Below are positions 20,557 to 57,022 of a DNA stretch of 64,000 bases, one piece after another. Where the stretch lies: positions 186,001 through 250,000 of the forward strand of contig JABVXV010000052.1 in the NCBI GenBank assembly GCA_013365325.1. The letters run 5' to 3'. Source of the stretch: Dipetalonema caudispina (Eukaryota; Nematoda; Chromadorea; Rhabditida; Onchocercidae). Under the pieces are notes generated by a model that saw nothing but the letters and a program-made list of their open reading frames with translations, ran no database searches and was not told the DNA's origin. The translations under genes and the position numbers were made by a program. Every line of letters starts with the position of its first letter. The first letter of the stretch is position 1.

Positions 20557-20629
20557 CGACCCTGGCAGGACTCGAACCTGCAATCTTCGCCTCCGGAGGG
20601 CGACGCCTTATCCATTAGGCCACAGGGCC
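20557..20629 (-). tRNA. tRNA-Arg (anticodon CCG), no intron
   Basis: On the minus strand the sequence folds into a complete cloverleaf of 73 nt. The acceptor stem GGCCCTG pairs with CAGGGTC (one G-T pair), followed by a G discriminator. The D arm is GCCTAATGGATAAGGC. The anticodon stem TCGCC/GGCGA closes the loop CTCCGGA, which puts CCG at positions 34-36. The T arm is GCAGG-TTCGAGT-CCTGC. The A box (TGGCCTAATGG) and B box (GGTTCGAGTCC) are canonical. It reads CGG arginine codons. Confidence 0.97.
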
Positions 20630-21758: not shown

Positions 21759-24700
21759 ATGGATAAAGAGGCGGAAGTTATCAATCGTAACGACTTAGTG
21801 CTTCGCATAAGGATCGCCAATGCGGTAATAATTCCAGTTTGATTGTACATTTCGAACAATCGTTAAAAAGCCTTTTTTTGCTTAATATCAACCATTAGGA
21901 CAAACACTGCGAAACAATGCAACAGGGCTACAGTAAAGACTACAACAGTAAACAGTATAAAGTTTTACGATAAATTTATAACAGACTAATAAATTTGTAT
22001 TTTATAACTTTGAGTTTATTCTATGAAGTGAAGAATAAGTAAACAGGTAAAACATAAGTTAGGAATTAAGGTAAAGGCGGCTGAGAGACTTTGCATTCTT
22101 CGTAATTCAGCAAATTTATAAGTTATTATCGCAAAATTGGTAACCTCATGCAGTATCTATGATTTATAATTTATATTTATTCGTTAATTAATATTCAATA
22201 ATGAATCAAAAGAATTGATCTGCTGATTGTTAGCATTTTGGATGTTTTCATAAAGACTTATGAGAGTTGAATGTTTCATTATATCTTATATTACTATCAT
22301 TTACTTTGTGGTATAAGTTGTGGAAATGCATAATTATTTCACAGCTATCGCTATTTGATGATGCAAGGAATAATATTCACAAATTAATTGAAAATTATGG
22401 TGAAGAGTTGACTAAGGAAGAAAGAAATTTGTTTGCAGTCTTCTATAAGGTTTGCACAACTTCATTAATAAATGTTTAAATGAAGGTGTAGACAAGTTAA
22501 AGGTTATATATGAAGGGTATTTAAAATTAACTTGCAAGTCTATTGTCATCCGTATTGATTTAAGCCAGTTAATTATAGTTTAATTGTAAAATGATCTCTA
22601 TTGATGTCTTAAAATTTGTCTTTGCTGGTCAAAAATTTTAACTTTCCAAAGTTGCTGAGAGTGAGAACAATTATATTTAGAGCTTACTGTCCAAATTTCA
22701 CAAAGAATATGATATGTACATGGATCTACAAAAAGAAATACCACGAAGGGAAATTCTTAAGCAGCGCATTTTACGTGATAACATGTATCGAGCACGTTAT
22801 GAAGTGGTCACCATTTGCGAGGAAGTGATCGTAAGTTAAGATTTATTTTGCAATTAAGATATCTATAAAGGATGTAAAAAAATGTAAGCATAGTTAAAGT
22901 ATCAGTTGTGATGAGAGCCATGTTTTGATACTAAACCTTTGTTTTGACACTTAGTGTTTTTTGTAGGATTTCCCAGGATAGATAAGAGCCTTAAAGCTAT
23001 CCGAGAGTTATATTGTTTCTTTGGATATGCGACTTTGAGTTCCATAACTTACGGCGATTCATTTTTTCATTGATTGTCAAATTTCTGGCGTCATTTCTAA
23101 TGCTCTGAAAATTCGTTTGATAACAACAAACTGATTTCCTTAGTTTTACTAATGTCAACCTATTCGTTGTCTAATAGCCTCTGGAGAATCAAACGTGTAA
23201 CGCAAAGACTTTAGTGCCGAATTTATTTCGAGAGTACTTAACCTATAGTATGATTTGTGAAATGATAATTGCTAACGAAAATTTGTCAAGTCATATTTGT
23301 TTATTTAAAGGAGAGTCAGAAAATTGTTTTTAAAATTAAAGAGTTGTTTTTGGTACTGCTTGAGGTTATAGTAAATTGAATTTAGTGGCAAATAGATAAT
23401 CTGATACGAATGGTTTATGAAGTCGAAAATGATTGTTTATAGGGAATGATCAATAATGATATTCTGGGCACGAAAAATATTGAACTGAAAATTTACTTTA
23501 TGAAACTTCGTGCTGATTATTTTCGATACTGGTCAAGTGTTGCAAGTGACGATAAATTTTTTAGTAAATCTTCCATTAAATTTCATTTTTTTTTTCATCA
23601 TATGTTCGTTGTTGCTCAATGGATGAAAAGTATTGGTCTGTATGAAACTAAAATTTTACTTTAGTTTACTTTATGAAACGTTACACTAATTATTTTCGAC
23701 ACTGATAGTATAGCGAATAACTGCAGGATTTATTGATAAAACGATTTCTGTGAATTTTAAATGCTCATTAGTAAGAAGTTTGTAGATCGGCGCAAAGCTT
23801 GGTATGCTACAAATTTACCCTATGTGTGCATAGTGTTTCCTACTGAAAATAAGGCCTGGTTTTAGGTTTGTATAAGCAAGCCGAGAATTACTATCACATG
23901 GCACTTGAGCTAGCTGATAAGAAGCTTAAAAGATACCATCCTCTACGTTTAGGTTTAATGCTCAACATGTCTATACATTATTATAAGATACCATGTGAAC
24001 GTATCAAAGCTATACAGTTATCAATGCAAGTATGCTTTCATTTCAATTTATTTAAATGGAAATTAAATTCTGAAATGCTTTCTACAAATACCCATTCATC
24101 TATAAATCAATTCCATCTTCTAAAAACTTAAAAATATTGTAAAACGATAGTTGCAAGTTGTATCATATTAGGTTCTTCAAATAAATATTATTTCAGGCTG
24201 TAACTGAAGGAAAGGAATATGTTAAAAAGGATCCGGATATTCGTGCAGCGGTGAATTTATTGCAAGATAATTTAAACGCTTGGATGGCAGATCTTGGTCC
24301 TAGAGAAGTGCGTGAATTGGAACTTCTGGAAGGAGCAAGAAAGTGGCATGGTGATTACCGCAAAATGTACTTTAAATTCATTCCTTCTCTCCCTTCTCAA
24401 CTTTCCAGATTCATCACTCCTGCTTCCTTCTTTTTATCATTTTCAAAAGAGTCTTTCCATCTTTTTCTAGAAAACTGAAATCTGAAAGAATCTCTTATCT
24501 CTTGAGTAAACGATATTGTTATATATAACTGATGAATAGGGATAATCATCATTCAGATCATTGTAAGCAGCGGCTTGTATATCCATATTACATCATCTTT
24601 TAGCTGAGCAGATGGTGGTAACTTCAATCGTTCAAAAAGGGAAAAGTTAACTAAACTGAATTTTTTGCGTTTTTGCTGTGTCAATTATTTTATAAATGTT

Positions 24701-26719
24701 GCAGGGAAAAGAGCAGCAGTACCATCCTCACATTTACTGCACTATTTATCTGGACAACTAAGTCCAAAATTTGAACTTCCAATGCCAGCACACCACCGAT
24801 ATTTCACTATTCCACAACCGTTGACGCGATACGACGAGTTTGAATATGAACCGACTTACGCTTGGAATGTCCCTCTGAAGCCAGATATTTTTGTACCTGA
24901 AACGGTACACACTTCGGACAAACAACAAGTTCCTTCGACGGAGCCTGAAATGTTTGTTGTTGAACCACAGAATACCACAACTGAATTACAAACCACTCAG
25001 ACGGAGTCACAAATCACTACATCTACAACAACCACTTCACCTACTGTTTTAGCAGCAGCAGCAGGATTACAGACGAACGTAGTTGACACAGATCCAATCT
25101 CCACAAAAGTACCCGAAAATATGCATCTCTACACATCTCGTCCAAAACTTACACCTCCTACAATTTCGTTTCATCATGCATCACAGGAAGAGCACGAATC
25201 AGACGATGAGCATGAATCAGACGAAGAGCATATATCACGACCAGATCCCTTTGATGGAATATTTCAACCGATCCTTAGTTCCTCGTCCTCACAATCCTCG
25301 TCTACCACATCATCACAACCATTGGATGAAGATGATGAAGACAACAATGGTAACTTCTATCATTCATCGACTAGTGCACCGCGCGATATTCCACGTACGG
25401 ATCAACGTAGAATCCCAACAACAGTAGATCCTACAAGTGGACTAACAAAACGACTTCTTAGTTTTGAATCCAGAATGCTAGCCATACAGAGAAGCCAACT
25501 TAGACTAGAACAAGCAGCAGAACGGGAATCGGAAGTTGAACAGCCAAATGAAGGAAGCGATTCACTTCCGGAATTGTGCAGAACAACAAGCGTAGCTACT
25601 ATTGAGGAATTGCAGACACCTTCGAATATTACGTCTTATGTCCCACAACAAATCGTGACAAGTGAAGTTTCAGTACCTTCATACACTCAGATAACAAGTG
25701 AACTCGGCACTGCTGGGGAATCGCAACCGCAACCTCAAAATATACCCACTGACCGTATTGCGGACAATCGCGATGCTGAATTGCAACAGCAACTTACTAC
25801 CTCCTCATATCAACCTAATATTAATACTTTTGCTTCTCTTCACCAAATTGATCTCTCTGCTCAACATCAACAACACCAAAGCACCTCGGAGGTTGAGCCA
25901 ACTAAACCTTCTAGAACATATGAACATCTTGTATTTCCAGAACCTGCACCACCAACTCCACCACCAAGAGTCATTTTCACTCCATACGGTCCGAAGATCG
26001 TCAACTTTTCCCCAACTTCATCGCTTGAAGGTGCTACTGCAGCTCTGTCACCTTCTTCGTCGGTTAAAAAAAAAAAATCAAAAGTTGTAACTTTCGATGA
26101 AAAGTGCACCTATTGGTCTTCTCAATCCACAATAGAGGCAGGAACTTGCTATAAGCGATTTCCAAAGCAAAGATCAATTCGACAGAGATCAACTCGTCCA
26201 CCTCCTCTAAGGTCAACATCAGTCGAAAAAGAACAGCAGGTGCCTTCTTCGCCTCAAAATCGCGGAACTCAACAAATTGCACTGACACCGCAACAAGACG
26301 CAAATCTTTACCAAGTCTCATCTTATCCGCAACAACTTCGTAGACAAAGCCACACATTAGAAAGTCGTCGACGAAGGTTGGCACAACGAAAACGACTTCG
26401 GCGCTCTTTTTCAGCTCCTCGAAATGGTGCTGTATGGCCACTATGTTCCTTAGTACGTGAACCTCCATATTTCATCTACAAGGTTCTGCGTCGAGCTTCT
26501 GCATCAAGTAGACAAGTCTTTGGCAGGCGATTTCTTTCAGTACATTCAAGTGCTGAGGATCTGTATGACGAAGCTGCTGAAAAGGCCTTTCCTGATCCAT
26601 GGGCTCCAAGAGGATCAAGAACGATGCATAACACTTTCCCTATTACACCATGGTTACCAAAAGAGAAGCCTCGTGTTCCATGGATTCGATTTCAGTGGCC
26701 TTATAGGAGAAGTTCGTGA
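21759..26719 (+). CDS. Divergent 14-3-3 domain fused to a long disordered tail
   Basis: 14-3-3 proteins bind phosphoserine/phosphothreonine clients as dimers. Exons 21759-21824, 22345-22449, 22681-22830, 23443-23545, 23866-24029, 24197-24350 and 24705-26719 join in phase and sum to 2757 bases, giving 918 residues. Residues 1-247 match the nine-helix 14-3-3 fold: EELTKEERNLF, LKIYFMKLRADYFRYW, HPLRLGLMLNMSIHYY, LLQDNLNAWMADLG. The usual acidic 14-3-3 C-terminus is missing; the frame instead runs on through GARKWH|GKRAAV into a 670-residue low-complexity region rich in Ser, Gln, Thr and Pro, with an acidic E/D-S-H repeat near 25190-25235 and a basic C-terminal third. RSFSAP (26402-26419) fits the mode-1 14-3-3-binding consensus RSXpSXP. 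The exon 6-7 joint uses CATG|GTGATT, the only donor giving the right phase. Alternative: the tail is a separate gene starting at the ATG near 24783. Confidence 0.7.
26402..26419 (+). other. Consensus 14-3-3-binding motif RSFSAP within the tail
   Basis: The six residues RSFSAP, preceded by Arg, match the mode-1 motif RSXpSXP exactly, with the second Ser as phospho-acceptor in a basic (PKA/AKT-like) setting. Nearby RRQSHT, RRASAS and RSTSVE could serve as weaker sites. Confidence 0.6.
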
Positions 26720-34346: not shown

Positions 34347-37300
34347 CTGAAACAGAAAAAGCTATCTGAACTAATTTTTGCATATAAATAGCTTTTCTCA
34401 CATTTTATTCATCAGTTTCTCATTATCATTTTATGAATTAATTCACTTTCTATTTAAAAATGAGACTAAAAATAACAACAAATATAAAAGGAAATTTAAA
34501 TCTAACCGGCATTCGTGAAATACTACTTTCGTGATGTGATGGACTGTAGGTACCCTGAGTTGCACGTCGTCCACGAATCATTACTACTGCCAATAATACG
34601 AAGCCAATGATGAGCAATGCCATTACAAGGGCTAATATTGGTCCAGCTATGTAACCCAATGAGATAGACCTAAAATTTTACTGTTATTTTTATAATCTTG
34701 TTAATTACCAAACTCAGTCTAATCCTCTAAGACAATGAAATAATGTAAAAGCTGACTTATAAAGATGTCATAATTTTTATAGCTAATATCTAGATTAGTT
34801 GATATTGAGAATGTAGAAAATTTTTCATATCTTGGAGCACATATCACAATATCGAAATATAGGATGAAGAAGAGAATCTCATATTTTATGTTGGCAATCA
34901 CTCATAATTTTGAAGGAATTAATTAGCAGAAATAAGAAATTAAAAATGTGTTGAAATGAAATTAATTTATATACCTTCTTTTCTCGACTAAGTGGATACA
35001 ATGCTCGCCACTATAGCCGAACTCACATTTACATTCATAACTTGCCACTTCCATATCATTCTTCATGCTAACTGCAGGGTGGATGCATGCACCATGCACA
35101 CAATCGTGTCTCGTTCGATTCAAACTATCCGGAATGCATGGATCTTCTACAGTACATCGTTTTCCAATATACCCTGAAACATACATCAAAAATTAATTTA
35201 TAGTTCAATAACTTGTCATACTCATCCATATTCATTTCCATATCTAAATAAACTAACCTATATCGCAAATACAATTATATGAGCCAATCAAGTTGGTGCA
35301 TCTACCGTAGACACAATGGCCCAATTCACATTCATTGATGTCCTCAGTACAATGAGTACCTTGGTAACCTGTACCTTCACAGTCACATTCGTATCCATTT
35401 ACACGATCCGTACAACGTCCGCCATTCTGGCACACTTCACTAACACAATCATCAATATCCACTGAACATGTTTCTCCTTCAACCAATCTATCATTTACAT
35501 TTTGAAGCAAATTAAGGAGTAAGTTGAATTAGAAATTTTAATGCATCGCTGCTGAATGTTAAAATTATTAAGGTTTCACTTTTTGCATTACTTAAACCTC
35601 ATTTATTTATCATCGGTAATTTCAGGAATTTTTTAGAGAGGAAAATACCAAAAGTTTTCTTAAAAGAAGAAATTTCATGTCTTTTCATAATTATTCATAG
35701 GATTTCAAAATAATGTTTTGAAAAATAGTTAAAAAAATTCTCAAATATTATGTAAGAAGTCAAAACGGAGTAATTGTAGCGAATGATAAGCAAAATCTTC
35801 ATTGGAAACTTCGGTCTTTTTCTTCCTTAGTATTTAATTAAGGGAAGTTTTCAGTCCTTATTGTAATCAAATAACCTGTAAAGCCAAGTAAGCATGAGCA
35901 ATTGAAGCCACCAATGAATCCTTGGCAGGTAGCACCATTCTCGCACGGATTTGGACTGCAGTAATCAATTATTATATCACATGCATCACCGGTATATCCT
36001 CGTCTGCAGATACATGAATGTGTAGTCGATGTTTGTTGTATGCAATCACCCTTATCACCACACGGTTCTTCTACACAACTGCCCACTATTTCACAATGAT
36101 CTCCTGAAATTTCAGAATTAATCGATATTAAACAAAAGCCTTATAACTCATACATTACACGTTATCGCATTGTCGAAGCATATTAAAGTGAAAAAATCAA
36201 AAACTCTTTCCTATCTTCAGTGATCAGCAGAAGAATTGCTGATAAAAGAGATCCATTTCATTGTTATAAGTAATTTTCAAGCAGTACTTGAACGGTAGAT
36301 ATGATTCCGAAAATCGATAAATATCATTGAATAGGAATGATTTCGAAAGAAGTATAATAAGAAATAACCTAAATGATAAGTATCGCAGCTACAGTGATAT
36401 GATCCAGATGTATTGGTGCAGTTACCATCATGTTCGCAAGGAAATCGCATACATTCATTAATATCAATATCACAGTATTCGCCGTTCCAACCTGGTTCAC
36501 AGTTACACAAAAAGTTGTCAGTTACCGTTTTGCATTGTCCATGTACACAAGGTGATGTGCTACAGTAATCCTTCACTTCATCACAAATCCGACCTGCAAA
36601 TGGAAATAAATAATGAAATTGAGAAGATATTATGAATATTATAAACTACATGTTACATGACAAAACTTACAAATATTATTTTATAGTTGATCTCACTAAT
36701 TCAAGGCATGAAACGGAATTAGATTTTATTAGCCCAGTATCATCTTACCTTACACGCAACAATTCTTCTGTCGCATACATTTCCTAATGCCATAAAATGA
36801 TTTTAATTAGCAAATAAGCATTGGAATTCACCGAGTACTGCTCATAAAGTTAGGAATAACATTAATATGGAAAGATTTGCATAATTTCTTCAGTCCACTA
36901 TCCTACGTTACGTGTCTTTTTGTGGCGAATGGAAAATCCCGAAATGTTGTTTTTCCTATAATAATTTTATAGAGCTTTTGAAAGTGAAATAATTTACAAT
37001 AAAATGAGTACCTTCATAACCATTGGCGCATATGCATTTAAAATCGCCATCTTTTGATATGCATATAGCTCCATTTTTGCATGGATTTGACTCACAAATA
37101 TCTTCTTGTACATCACAAAGTATACCACCAAAACCTGGCGGACAGTCGCATTTGAATGTATCCTAAAACACAAATACAAGTGAAGCATTTCACTCATTTA
37201 TGGGAAATTCTAGTATTTGAGATTTTGATTTTAAAAAATTGAGATTTAAAAAAACTTTCTTATGAAATTTTGTCGCATTTTTTAACAAAATAATTACTGC

Positions 37301-55211: not shown

Positions 55212-57022
55212 ATGTATCTGCTATGGTTCATGTGGTGTTCCATGTTTACTGTCCCTGCAGGTATGGTTTGATTTTCATCGTTGGAAATATTTCAAAATTA
55301 ATCCAAAAGTTTTACCTTCCTTTAGAACATCGAATATAGGTTATTGTTTCCAATTATTGTTGTTTATTTGGAAAGAGTCAGTTAATTCTATGGCATGAAA
55401 TTTATATGAAATAGTTTACTCTTCAGAATCTGTGGCATTACTTTGTCGTAACTGCGGACGTGACATTGTCGAAGGTTCGACACTTACCAATGAGAAGAGT
55501 GTGAAAGCCATACGTTCATATAATATGACCATTTTGGGCCGAAATCAGCTCGTTCAAGTATTCGAAAATGCTGTCCGTATGTTTAAATTTCCTTTTCGAA
55601 TTTATATGTGAATTCAGTAAGCTTTCAGATAATTTTATACGTATTTCACTTTATTCTTTGACAGCACCAACAGATGCTTCTTGTTGGTAGTTTAAAACGT
55701 TGATTAGTCTACAAGTAGTTAAACATCAGTCATCCGTAAAAAATTGATTCTTGGATGCAATAAGGTGTCAGTAGATTACTGTTCAGTTCGAATTTTTTCT
55801 CTATGCTATGCAATATTTTCATATCATTATTTTTTTATGAAGTTTTTTGCAGCTGAAAAATTCGATGTGATAACCGCTTCAACCGCTGAACTGAGACTTG
55901 CAGGTAAGGTAAGCAAACCCTGAAATTTCGTTTCTACATTTTCTTACCAAATGGTTTTTTAGAGATGAAAAGAAGGTGTCTAATGATTCTTTTACTTGTT
56001 TGAGATGCTTTTTACTCGAATAATTGCCTCACCAATTAAATTTTAATTGCTTGACATATATCGCAACCTAATGAAATGTTAAATGAAATCTAACACTATA
56101 AACTACATTGCCTCCCATCATTCAGTAATCGACACTGACTTTTCTGCCAATTCTTGGGTTGGTTTATTTCGGGATAAAATCATGATAATGTGACTACTAA
56201 AGTGTGCAGAAAGTGTTTCGCAAAGTCACCTTAGCGGGATGTCTTATTGAAAGTTCTAGTCGTTTTCATACTTCATCTGGATAATCATCATCTAGTTCTT
56301 GTATTTGATTAAACTGTACTCCTGAAGAAAAAGAAATGTATTGTTTTGCAGTCTTACCTAGCGGATACTTGGTGGCCGAATTATGAGTGGACCGTTTGTG
56401 TGTGTCCTAGCTGCGGTTTTCATTTGGGATGGTATTATTTCTTGCTTCTGCCGTTTCATTTTTTTATTGACGAGATGCTTTGATCCTTGTTAAAAAGAGC
56501 ACTGTTTGAATTCTTTATTTTTTATATTCCAGGTATTTCCAATCAGGTAATATCCAAGCGAAGTTACACAAATCATTCTTTGGGCTTGTTCTGGATTACT
56601 TAATCAGTGAAGAATGTAAGGATTTATTTGACAAAAAATGATTTTTTATGGAGGTAGCGTGTGATCTGTATTTAAAAGTCGAAAATATTTTGAATACTGG
56701 CAGGTGGCAAGCACCATTTCTATTATTTTTCTTTTTTCAGACGTTGATTTGTTGACGTGGGTACCATAGTTTTGGAAACGAGTAATGTCGATATTTATTA
56801 TCAGTGTGATGTATAATTTGATGCAGTCAATTTGCTTCATAACTATTAGGTTTTAATGTAATAATCTCAAAATTGTTTTATATTGCAAATTATTGTACTC
56901 ACATACTTTAATAATTTAAGAAAGTAAACATCCTTTTTTCAGTGCATAGAAATTATTACTTGAAGTATAATGGAAAGGTACCTCTAGTGGATCTTACGGA
57001 ATGTGGAGCACTACCCGCTTGA
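55212..57022 (+). CDS. Secreted CULT-domain protein (cereblon thalidomide-binding fold), complete
   Basis: Exons 55212-55260, 55427-55576, 55853-55908, 56352-56431, 56533-56615 and 56943-57022 agree in phase and total 498 bases, giving 165 residues. The N-terminus (MYLLWFMWCSMFTVPA) is a signal peptide, so the protein should be secreted. The rest is one CULT domain: CRNC, a middle part with ITASTAELRLAGK, then DTWWPNYEWTVCVCPSCG and HLGWYF. The two CxxC pairs match the zinc site. The three Trp at the positions of the cereblon cage (W380, W386, W400 in human) are all present; in cereblon they bind glutarimides such as thalidomide and C-terminal cyclic imide degrons. There is no Lon domain or DDB1-binding region, so this is not a ubiquitin-ligase receptor but a member of the secreted single-domain CULT group known in animals. 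The ATG follows TTTTCACAG, a likely spliced-leader acceptor. Confidence 0.88.

What the first reader, a model, noticed from the sequence alone, without database searches (positions are those of the whole stretch)
21759..26719. A 14-3-3 domain that continues in frame into a 670-residue disordered tail
Ordinary 14-3-3 proteins end about 20-30 residues after the last helix. Here exon 6 lacks the usual acidic end and stop within the 14-3-3 pattern, and splices in phase into a 2-kb open exon. The seven exons sum to a whole number of codons. The tail exon has no in-frame ATG between its acceptor and residue 26 or so, which argues against an independent start right there. If real, this is an adaptor covalently joined to a large intrinsically disordered region.
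Basis: partly seen in the sequence, partly recalled or inferred. Interest (0 to 1): 0.8.

Follow-up and report, generated by a model that had tools for sequence, protein, structure and literature searches.

The report
14-3-3 protein with long built-in tail
A filarial worm gene makes a very divergent 14-3-3 signalling adaptor joined to a 650-residue floppy tail, an arrangement kept in the related parasitic worms found here, whose tail carries conserved stretches that look able to sit in the adaptor's own binding groove.

Summary
Seven exons (21759-26719) encode one 924-residue protein: a divergent 14-3-3 domain (Pfam E 3.9e-34; 30% identical to the same genome's canonical 14-3-3) spliced in phase into a long, mostly disordered tail. 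The fusion is no gene-model accident. All 9 homologues that span the joint read through it (RKW[HF]GKxAA). The 25 tail residues before the first ATG are more conserved than the next 151 in 9 of 9 comparisons. That ATG is Met in 3 of 12 sequences. Two AlphaFold models put the first tail residues in a helix of the folded domain.

Most groove residues are conserved, but R56 is His in the window. The dimer face is rewritten (R18 to L/M, S58 to E/D, Y82 to N/F in 10 of 10). The tail keeps a 14-3-3-type motif (RSFS[AT]P, 12 of 13) and an island, DxF[ED][GE]xxQP, that both models seem to lay near the groove at very low confidence. Best reading: a cis-regulated 14-3-3 carrying its own groove ligands. 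The fusion is near certain; the mechanism is inferred. Homologues are already in databases; ten paper searches found no description.

The parts
21759..21824 (+). exon 1: start codon and 14-3-3 helix A
   Evidence: aligns with homologues
22345..22449 (+). exon 2: 14-3-3 core, ends at the K49 equivalent
22681..22830 (+). exon 3: 14-3-3 core; R56 equivalent is His here (Arg in 8 of 8 homologues with a residue there), S58 equivalent is Glu
23443..23563 (+). exon 4: 14-3-3 core with K120, R127, Y128 equivalents; donor A|GTAAAT
   Evidence: SDDKFF aligned with nine homologues
23866..24029 (+). exon 5: 14-3-3 core with L172/N173 equivalents
24197..24350 (+). exon 6: 14-3-3 helix I (N224, W228 equivalents) and extra helix 10, ends WHG|
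24351..24704 (+). intron 6, phase 1, 354 nt, no AATAAA; its retention would give a stop at 24476-24478
24705..26719 (+). exon 7: tail, residues 254-924 and stop
   Evidence: homologues
24728..24751 (+). extra helix 11 of the folded domain, encoded by the tail exon (residues 262-269)
   Evidence: AlphaFold models of two orthologues; coordinates
24797..24814 (+). RYFTIP, 14-3-3 mode-I-like site close to the domain (residues 285-290)
25244..25270 (+). DPFDGIFQP, conserved island (residues 434-442), candidate phosphate-free groove ligand
26084..26101 (+). VVTFDE, part of a weak RVxF-like stretch (residues 714-719)
26381..26695 (+). conserved C-terminal region (residues 813-917), no convincing Pfam match
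26402..26419 (+). RSFSAP, exact mode-I 14-3-3 motif RSxSxP (residues 820-825)

Best explanation
SHOWN by sequence: one gene encodes a divergent 14-3-3 domain that continues without a break into a ~650-residue, low-complexity tail, and the same arrangement is found in filariae and in Thelazia. PREDICTED by AlphaFold: the domain has two extra helices that cross the exon joint, and the tail is otherwise mostly disordered. INFERRED: it is a cis-regulated 14-3-3. The groove keeps most of its ligand-binding residues. The tail brings its own candidate ligands: an acidic, phosphate-free island (DxF[ED][GE]xxQP) that can lie in the groove at rest, and one or two phosphorylatable mode-I sites (RSFS[AT]P near the C-terminus, RYFT[IM]P near the domain) that, once phosphorylated by basophilic kinases, compete for the groove in cis or in a partner protomer. 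With a rewritten dimer face the protein probably does not form ordinary homodimers. Kinase input would switch the tail between plugged and open states and so expose or hide the rest of the conserved tail to partners.
Against: The groove placement of the island rests on block pLDDT of only 29-34 and 33-36 and on first/last aligned residues; I could not inspect coordinates. The two models share most of one alignment. The aligned lengths of the peptide rows in model 2 (228-237) overlap those of the other rows (217-233), so length alone does not show the peptide is aligned. The 13 tails are homologous, so motif counts are not independent: a shuffled tail has strict RSxSxP with a chance of about 8%, and RSFSAP lies in a generally conserved region. 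Setaria has RSFSAQ, which breaks the motif. The window's R56 is His, which should weaken phosphate binding. Glu at position 58 alone leaves human 14-3-3 zeta dimeric at 50 uM (PMC10141581, passages), so the dimer claim rests on the combination. E180 of the groove is kept in only 1 of 10. No expression or phosphorylation data were available.
Confidence: 0.42

Rival explanations
1. Ordinary client adaptor with a passive tail: the divergent 14-3-3 domain binds phosphorylated clients in trans (possibly as a heterodimer with the canonical 14-3-3) and the tail only localises it or recruits partners through its conserved C-terminal region; no self-binding.
For: Groove residues mostly conserved; the most conserved tail part is a 100-residue C-terminal region that looks like a partner-binding region rather than a single groove peptide.
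Against: A near-invariant mode-I motif inside the same polypeptide, and low-confidence placement of another conserved island near the groove in two models.
Confidence: 0.36
2. The groove is vestigial: the domain has become a structural helical scaffold and its divergence from canonical 14-3-3 reflects loss of phosphopeptide binding.
For: Only 26-31% identity to human zeta against 83% for the canonical protein of the same genome; R56 to His in the window; E180 lost in 9 of 10; the Thelazia model lacks the K49-R56 stretch.
Against: K120, R127, Y128, L172, N173, N224 and W228 kept in 10 of 10 although the domain is only 51-79% identical to the window across the nine homologues.
Confidence: 0.12
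3. Mainly a short 14-3-3 isoform: intron 6 is usually retained or polyadenylated, giving a 14-3-3 of 295 residues, and the long form is minor.
For: A read-through frame of 42 codons exists before a stop at 24476-24478; weak signal variants at 24505 and 24691.
Against: No AATAAA in intron 6; the tail is conserved in all nine spanning homologues, which a minor form would not predict.
Confidence: 0.06
4. Two genes of an operon: the tail is a separate cistron, trans-spliced at 24705 and started at ATG 24782.
For: 354-nt gap; base composition changes at the tail exon.
Against: Residues 255-279 upstream of the ATG are conserved and the ATG is Met in only 3 of 12; joint conserved in 9 of 9; helix 11 of the folded domain lies before the ATG.
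Confidence: 0.02

Closest known systems
Canonical 14-3-3 proteins (PF00244; human zeta, and the same genome's gene on C147)
   Same: Nine-helix fold and most groove residues
   Different: 26-31% identity to zeta, changed dimer face (R18, S58, Y82, A16), two extra C-terminal helices and a ~650-residue tail in place of a short acidic end
Engineered 14-3-3 chimeras with a tethered phosphopeptide or partner (e.g. 14-3-3-HSPB6, PMC6802120; PDB 5okf, 8ah2, 4zdr)
   Same: Ligand covalently tethered C-terminal to the 14-3-3 core (passages; row titles)
   Different: Those are man-made with short linkers; here the fusion is natural, the candidate ligands lie about 30 to 570 residues downstream, and self-binding is unproven
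PARP4-like proteins with an appended 14-3-3 domain in amoebae, lancelet, sea urchin, Capsaspora (PMC4245714, passage)
   Same: A natural protein in which a 14-3-3 domain is part of a larger chain
   Different: There 14-3-3 is added to an enzyme; here 14-3-3 comes first and the rest has no known domain
SMG5/SMG6/SMG7 (EST1) 14-3-3-like domains (recalled, no call)
   Same: N-terminal 14-3-3-like domain followed by further helices and a long disordered part
   Different: As I recall those are structural look-alikes rather than PF00244 members by sequence; this one is a PF00244 member

Membership tests
14-3-3 (PF00244) | Sequence match above Pfam's curated cut-off | tested here: met
   118.6 bits against cut-off 33.2; 9 of 12 members of A2 match, the other three being tail-only pieces
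14-3-3 (PF00244) | Nine helices in the 14-3-3 arrangement | tested here: met
14-3-3 (PF00244) | Phosphate pocket K49, R56, R127, Y128 (labels recalled) | tested here: inconclusive
   All four kept in 8 of 9 sequences with residues there; the window itself has His at 56; Thelazia lacks the K49-R56 stretch in its annotated model
14-3-3 (PF00244) | Groove residues K120, L172, N173, N224, W228 (labels recalled) | tested here: met
   10 of 10 sequences
14-3-3 (PF00244) | Conserved dimer contacts R18, Y82, S58 (S58 at the interface: PMC10141581 passages; others recalled) | tested here: not met
   R18 to L/M, S58 to E/D, Y82 to N/F in 10 of 10; E89 kept 10 of 10, D21 kept as D (8) or E (2). I file it as a divergent member by sequence and fold, not as a typical dimeric 14-3-3.
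14-3-3 (PF00244) | Dimer in solution | not testable with these tools
   needs purified protein
Phosphopeptide-tethered 14-3-3 (works-like comparison) | Mode-I motif in the same chain | tested here: met
   RSFS[AT]P in 12 of 13 tails
Phosphopeptide-tethered 14-3-3 (works-like comparison) | Tethered peptide occupies the groove | tested here: inconclusive
   very-low-confidence model placement of a different island, DxF[ED][GE]xxQP
PP1-docking proteins (RVxF) | [KR][KR]?[VI]{FIMYDP}[FW] motif | tested here: inconclusive
   [KR][KR]VTF in 4 of 13 tails by the strict pattern; VVTF/TVTF in seven other sequences of 14, the window and its near-copy P0001 among them; total strict count 11, within the shuffle maximum of 12 (mean 3.9)

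The most novel reading that the evidence does not exclude
A natural self-liganded 14-3-3: a monomer-leaning 14-3-3 protomer whose own disordered tail carries both a constitutive, phosphate-free plug (DxF[ED][GE]xxQP) and phospho-switched ligands (RSFpS[AT]P, RYFpT[IM]P), so that one polypeptide is hub, client and switch. It would be a spirurine-nematode invention that turns the usual trans-acting 14-3-3 logic into a cis-regulated scaffold.
Probability: 0.3. Interest if true: 0.82.

Novelty: new variant of a known kind. Interest (0 to 1): 0.6.

Why it matters
14-3-3 proteins are a much-studied, strongly conserved family; the ordinary ones end soon after helix I and act in trans as dimers. A conserved natural version with a changed dimer face, an ordered cap running across an exon joint, and a long tail holding its own candidate ligands would be a ready-made case of cis-regulation, something otherwise built by hand to study 14-3-3 complexes. 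It is also a 14-3-3 gene far from the human proteins in sequence, in a group of worms that includes the agents of filariasis.

Tried and rejected
Separate cistron for the tail: rejected on conservation before the ATG and absence of the Met in 9 of 12 sequences. Exon 4 donor at 23545: set aside because it drops residues present in all nine full-length homologues; my first protein, used, had this shorter exon and so lacked six residues. Wider reach: the full-length alignment returned nine known members and missed three that one search had found (P0001, P0010, P0012), so its reach was limited; the C-terminal region alone (484 candidates of 0.55-1.75 times 890 residues, E up to 1) returned 13, twelve known and one more tail-only piece (P0013). 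PP1 docking: the strict RVxF count is within the shuffle range, so it is kept as weak. Known domain in the tail: only weak Pfam hits above E 0.005, which I did not take as real. Viral structure library: no match at E 0.001. VIA rows for other chimeras (6zfd in both models; 8p1h and 7q16 in model 2) did not extend into the tail; those rows were trimmed of low-pLDDT stretches, so they do not test it. Expression in extracellular vesicles: B. malayi 14-3-3 entries Bm4259, Bm9583 and Bm10299 are reported (PMC5919703, PMC11732158; passages) but I could not tell whether any is the fusion. Paper searches (for prior description; 32, 38, 40 on side questions) listed no paper on it in this library, which lacks most subscription journals.
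Full report
GENE MODEL. I read the locus and rebuilt the gene from its splice sites. Seven exons, 21759-21824, 22345-22449, 22681-22830, 23443-23563, 23866-24029, 24197-24350 and 24705-26719, join to a 2775-nt reading frame with a single terminal stop, giving 924 residues. Intron 6, at the joint, is phase 1. Exon 4 has two usable donors in the same frame; the later one (A|GTAAAT) gives ...SDDKFFSLYKQAE..., which aligns with SEDQFFGVRKRAE and the like in the homologues, so I prefer it. The tail exon keeps 670 codons open, against a mean of 113 and a maximum of 416 in 2000 Markov controls.

IS THE FUSION REAL? The first homology search returned 12 proteins. Eight are named species with the same architecture: Loa loa, Wuchereria bancrofti (partial), Brugia pahangi, Acanthocheilonema viteae, Cercopithifilaria johnstoni, Elaeophora elaphi, Setaria digitata and Thelazia callipaeda (1483 residues). 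P0010, from a source without names, is a ninth full-length fusion. P0001 (99% identical to the window), P0009 and P0011 are tail-only open frames. A later search added P0013, also tail-only. Across the joint, 9 of 9 spanning homologues read RKW[HF]GK.AA followed by a conserved stretch. Window residues 255-279, before the first tail ATG, are 44-80% identical to the nine full-length homologues, while residues 280-430, after it, are 20-55% identical; the first figure is the higher in each of the nine. The ATG itself is Met in 3 of 12 sequences (window, Loa, Wuchereria) and V, I, L or E in the others; P0001 and P0013 were not counted, the first because its frame was called from that Met and the second because it starts later. 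P0009 shows the raw frame running upstream into ...SINFTGKK instead of RKWHGK, which fits an intron acceptor at the same place in another species (inference). P0010 is an 890-residue frame on a 3546-nt contig without any insert at five of six joints and a four-residue difference beside the exon 4/5 joint, so it looks like a spliced transcript (the molecule type is not stated by the tool). The other annotated proteins are gene predictions; their agreement alone would be weak, but conservation before the ATG does not depend on annotation.

FOLD. Pfam's only match above its cut-off is 14-3-3 (118.6 bits). AlphaFold models led by C. johnstoni P0006 and by P0010, 40% identical to each other, agree: nine 14-3-3 helices, then a tenth (237-253; 242-258) and an eleventh (262-269; 267-274), then mostly pLDDT below 50 (602 of 916 and 584 of 890 residues in all). 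Helix 10 ends at the exon joint (W252-G254 of P0006) and helix 11 is encoded by the tail exon. The exon joint therefore lies inside the folded part, which is a further argument that the two exons belong together. Helix 11 precedes the ATG. The two models share most of one alignment and are not fully independent.

GROOVE AND DIMER FACE. On an alignment with human zeta (residue roles recalled, except Ser58, confirmed in passages of PMC10141581), K120, R127, Y128, L172, N173, N224 and W228 are kept in 10 of 10 sequences, K49 in 9 of 9 and R56 in 8 of 9; the exception is the window itself (His). Thelazia's annotated model lacks the K49-R56 stretch. Against this, E180 is kept in 1 of 10. On the dimer face R18 is L or M, S58 is E (9) or D (1), Y82 is N (9) or F (1) and A16 is L, I or V in all ten; E89 is kept. 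The canonical 14-3-3 of the same genome keeps R18, S58 and Y82 and is 83% identical to human zeta over 218 residues, while the window's fusion domain is 30% identical to it. S58E by itself leaves human zeta dimeric at 50 uM (PMC10141581 passages) and phosphomimics shift the equilibrium far less than phosphorylation (PMC8935074 abstract), so a monomer is only a prediction from several changes together.

TAIL. The 13 tails have 0.21-0.27 order-promoting residues against 0.35-0.40 in the domain of the ten full-length sequences. Smoothing conservation over 13 sequences (P0001 dropped as a near copy of the window) leaves few islands: the start (GKRAAVPSS), PFDGIFQP within DxF[ED][GE]xxQP, FESRM, a few of one or two residues, and the C-terminal region 813-917 in three pieces. 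In that region 12 of 13 tails carry RSFS[AT]P, an exact RSxSxP mode-I motif; Setaria has RSFSAQ. A second mode-I-like site, RYFT[IM]P, lies 32 residues into the tail in seven and at the matching place in P0011, thus in 8 of the 12 tails that include that region. Together R[SFYW]x[ST]xP occurs 21 times in 13 tails, against a shuffle mean of 2.8 and maximum of 8 of 500; since the tails are homologous this is not an independent sample, and one shuffled tail holds the strict RSxSxP by chance about 8% of the time. About 29 residues after the RSFS serine lies a RxAS site, LRRAS in 11 of 14 sequences.

A LEAD ON SELF-BINDING. In the 50 rows listed for each model, VIA-align against solved structures gives 14-3-3 chains throughout. 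Ten rows of model 1 and 18 of model 2 were aligned without trimming the low-confidence parts. Among these, rows for chains that hold a peptide (9uj2, 8qt5, 8ah2 and 4zdr; in model 2 also 5okf, titled as having self-bound phosphopeptides) run far beyond the domain, to model residues 411-420 in model 1 and 421-430 in model 2. The other untrimmed rows, 6 and 13, end at 232-234 and 238-241. The island DxFEGxxQP is at 408-416 and 418-426 in the two models. I read this as the models laying that island where the chimera peptides lie. The block pLDDT is 29-34 and 33-36 there, only slightly above its surroundings; the tool reports only the ends of the range; and the aligned lengths overlap those of other rows. 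So this is a lead and not a result. An acidic, phosphate-free peptide in a 14-3-3 groove has precedent in the ExoS and R18 peptides (recalled).

MECHANISM. I think the most likely working is a cis-regulated adaptor: a groove kept by selection, a tail that brings its own candidate ligands, and a dimer face changed away from ordinary homodimers. The close rival is a passive tail with clients bound in trans. A vestigial groove is possible but fits the conserved groove poorly.

CONTEXT AND NOVELTY. The tail has one match in the 78-Mb assembly, and the seven 14-3-3 family hits there fall at two loci, the canonical gene on C147 and this one; that search scores best candidates only and found a single exon of this gene, so further divergent copies are not excluded. 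The homologues are already in public databases as '14-3-3 domain-containing' or '14-3-3 family' proteins, so the existence of the protein is on record; ten searches of the open-access library listed no paper describing the fusion. Natural 14-3-3 fusions are known elsewhere (PARP4-like proteins, PMC4245714, one passage), and engineered 14-3-3-ligand chimeras are a tool (PMC6802120, start of abstract and passages). I therefore call this a new variant of a known kind.

Noticed in passing
G000 contig C147:56321-56491 and 56099-56266 (minus strand; loci L001, L002): The genome's canonical 14-3-3 gene has two alternative exons for the same stretch (zeta ~135-191), both in frame and flanked by AG/GT: VVEKSQQSYQEAFDIAKDK... 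and AVADAGQKAYSEALEIAKAQ... They look like mutually exclusive exons.
   Followed up: partly
window 22699-22701 (exon 3): The residue equivalent to R56 of the phosphate pocket is His in the window species and Arg in all eight homologues that have a residue there; it could be a real change or an assembly or allele difference.
   Followed up: no
window 20557-20629, minus strand: tRNA-Arg (CCG) just upstream of the gene.
   Followed up: no
window 35838-36140, minus strand: Open frame with EGF-like cysteine repeats (judged by eye), probably an exon of a secreted or surface protein.
   Followed up: no
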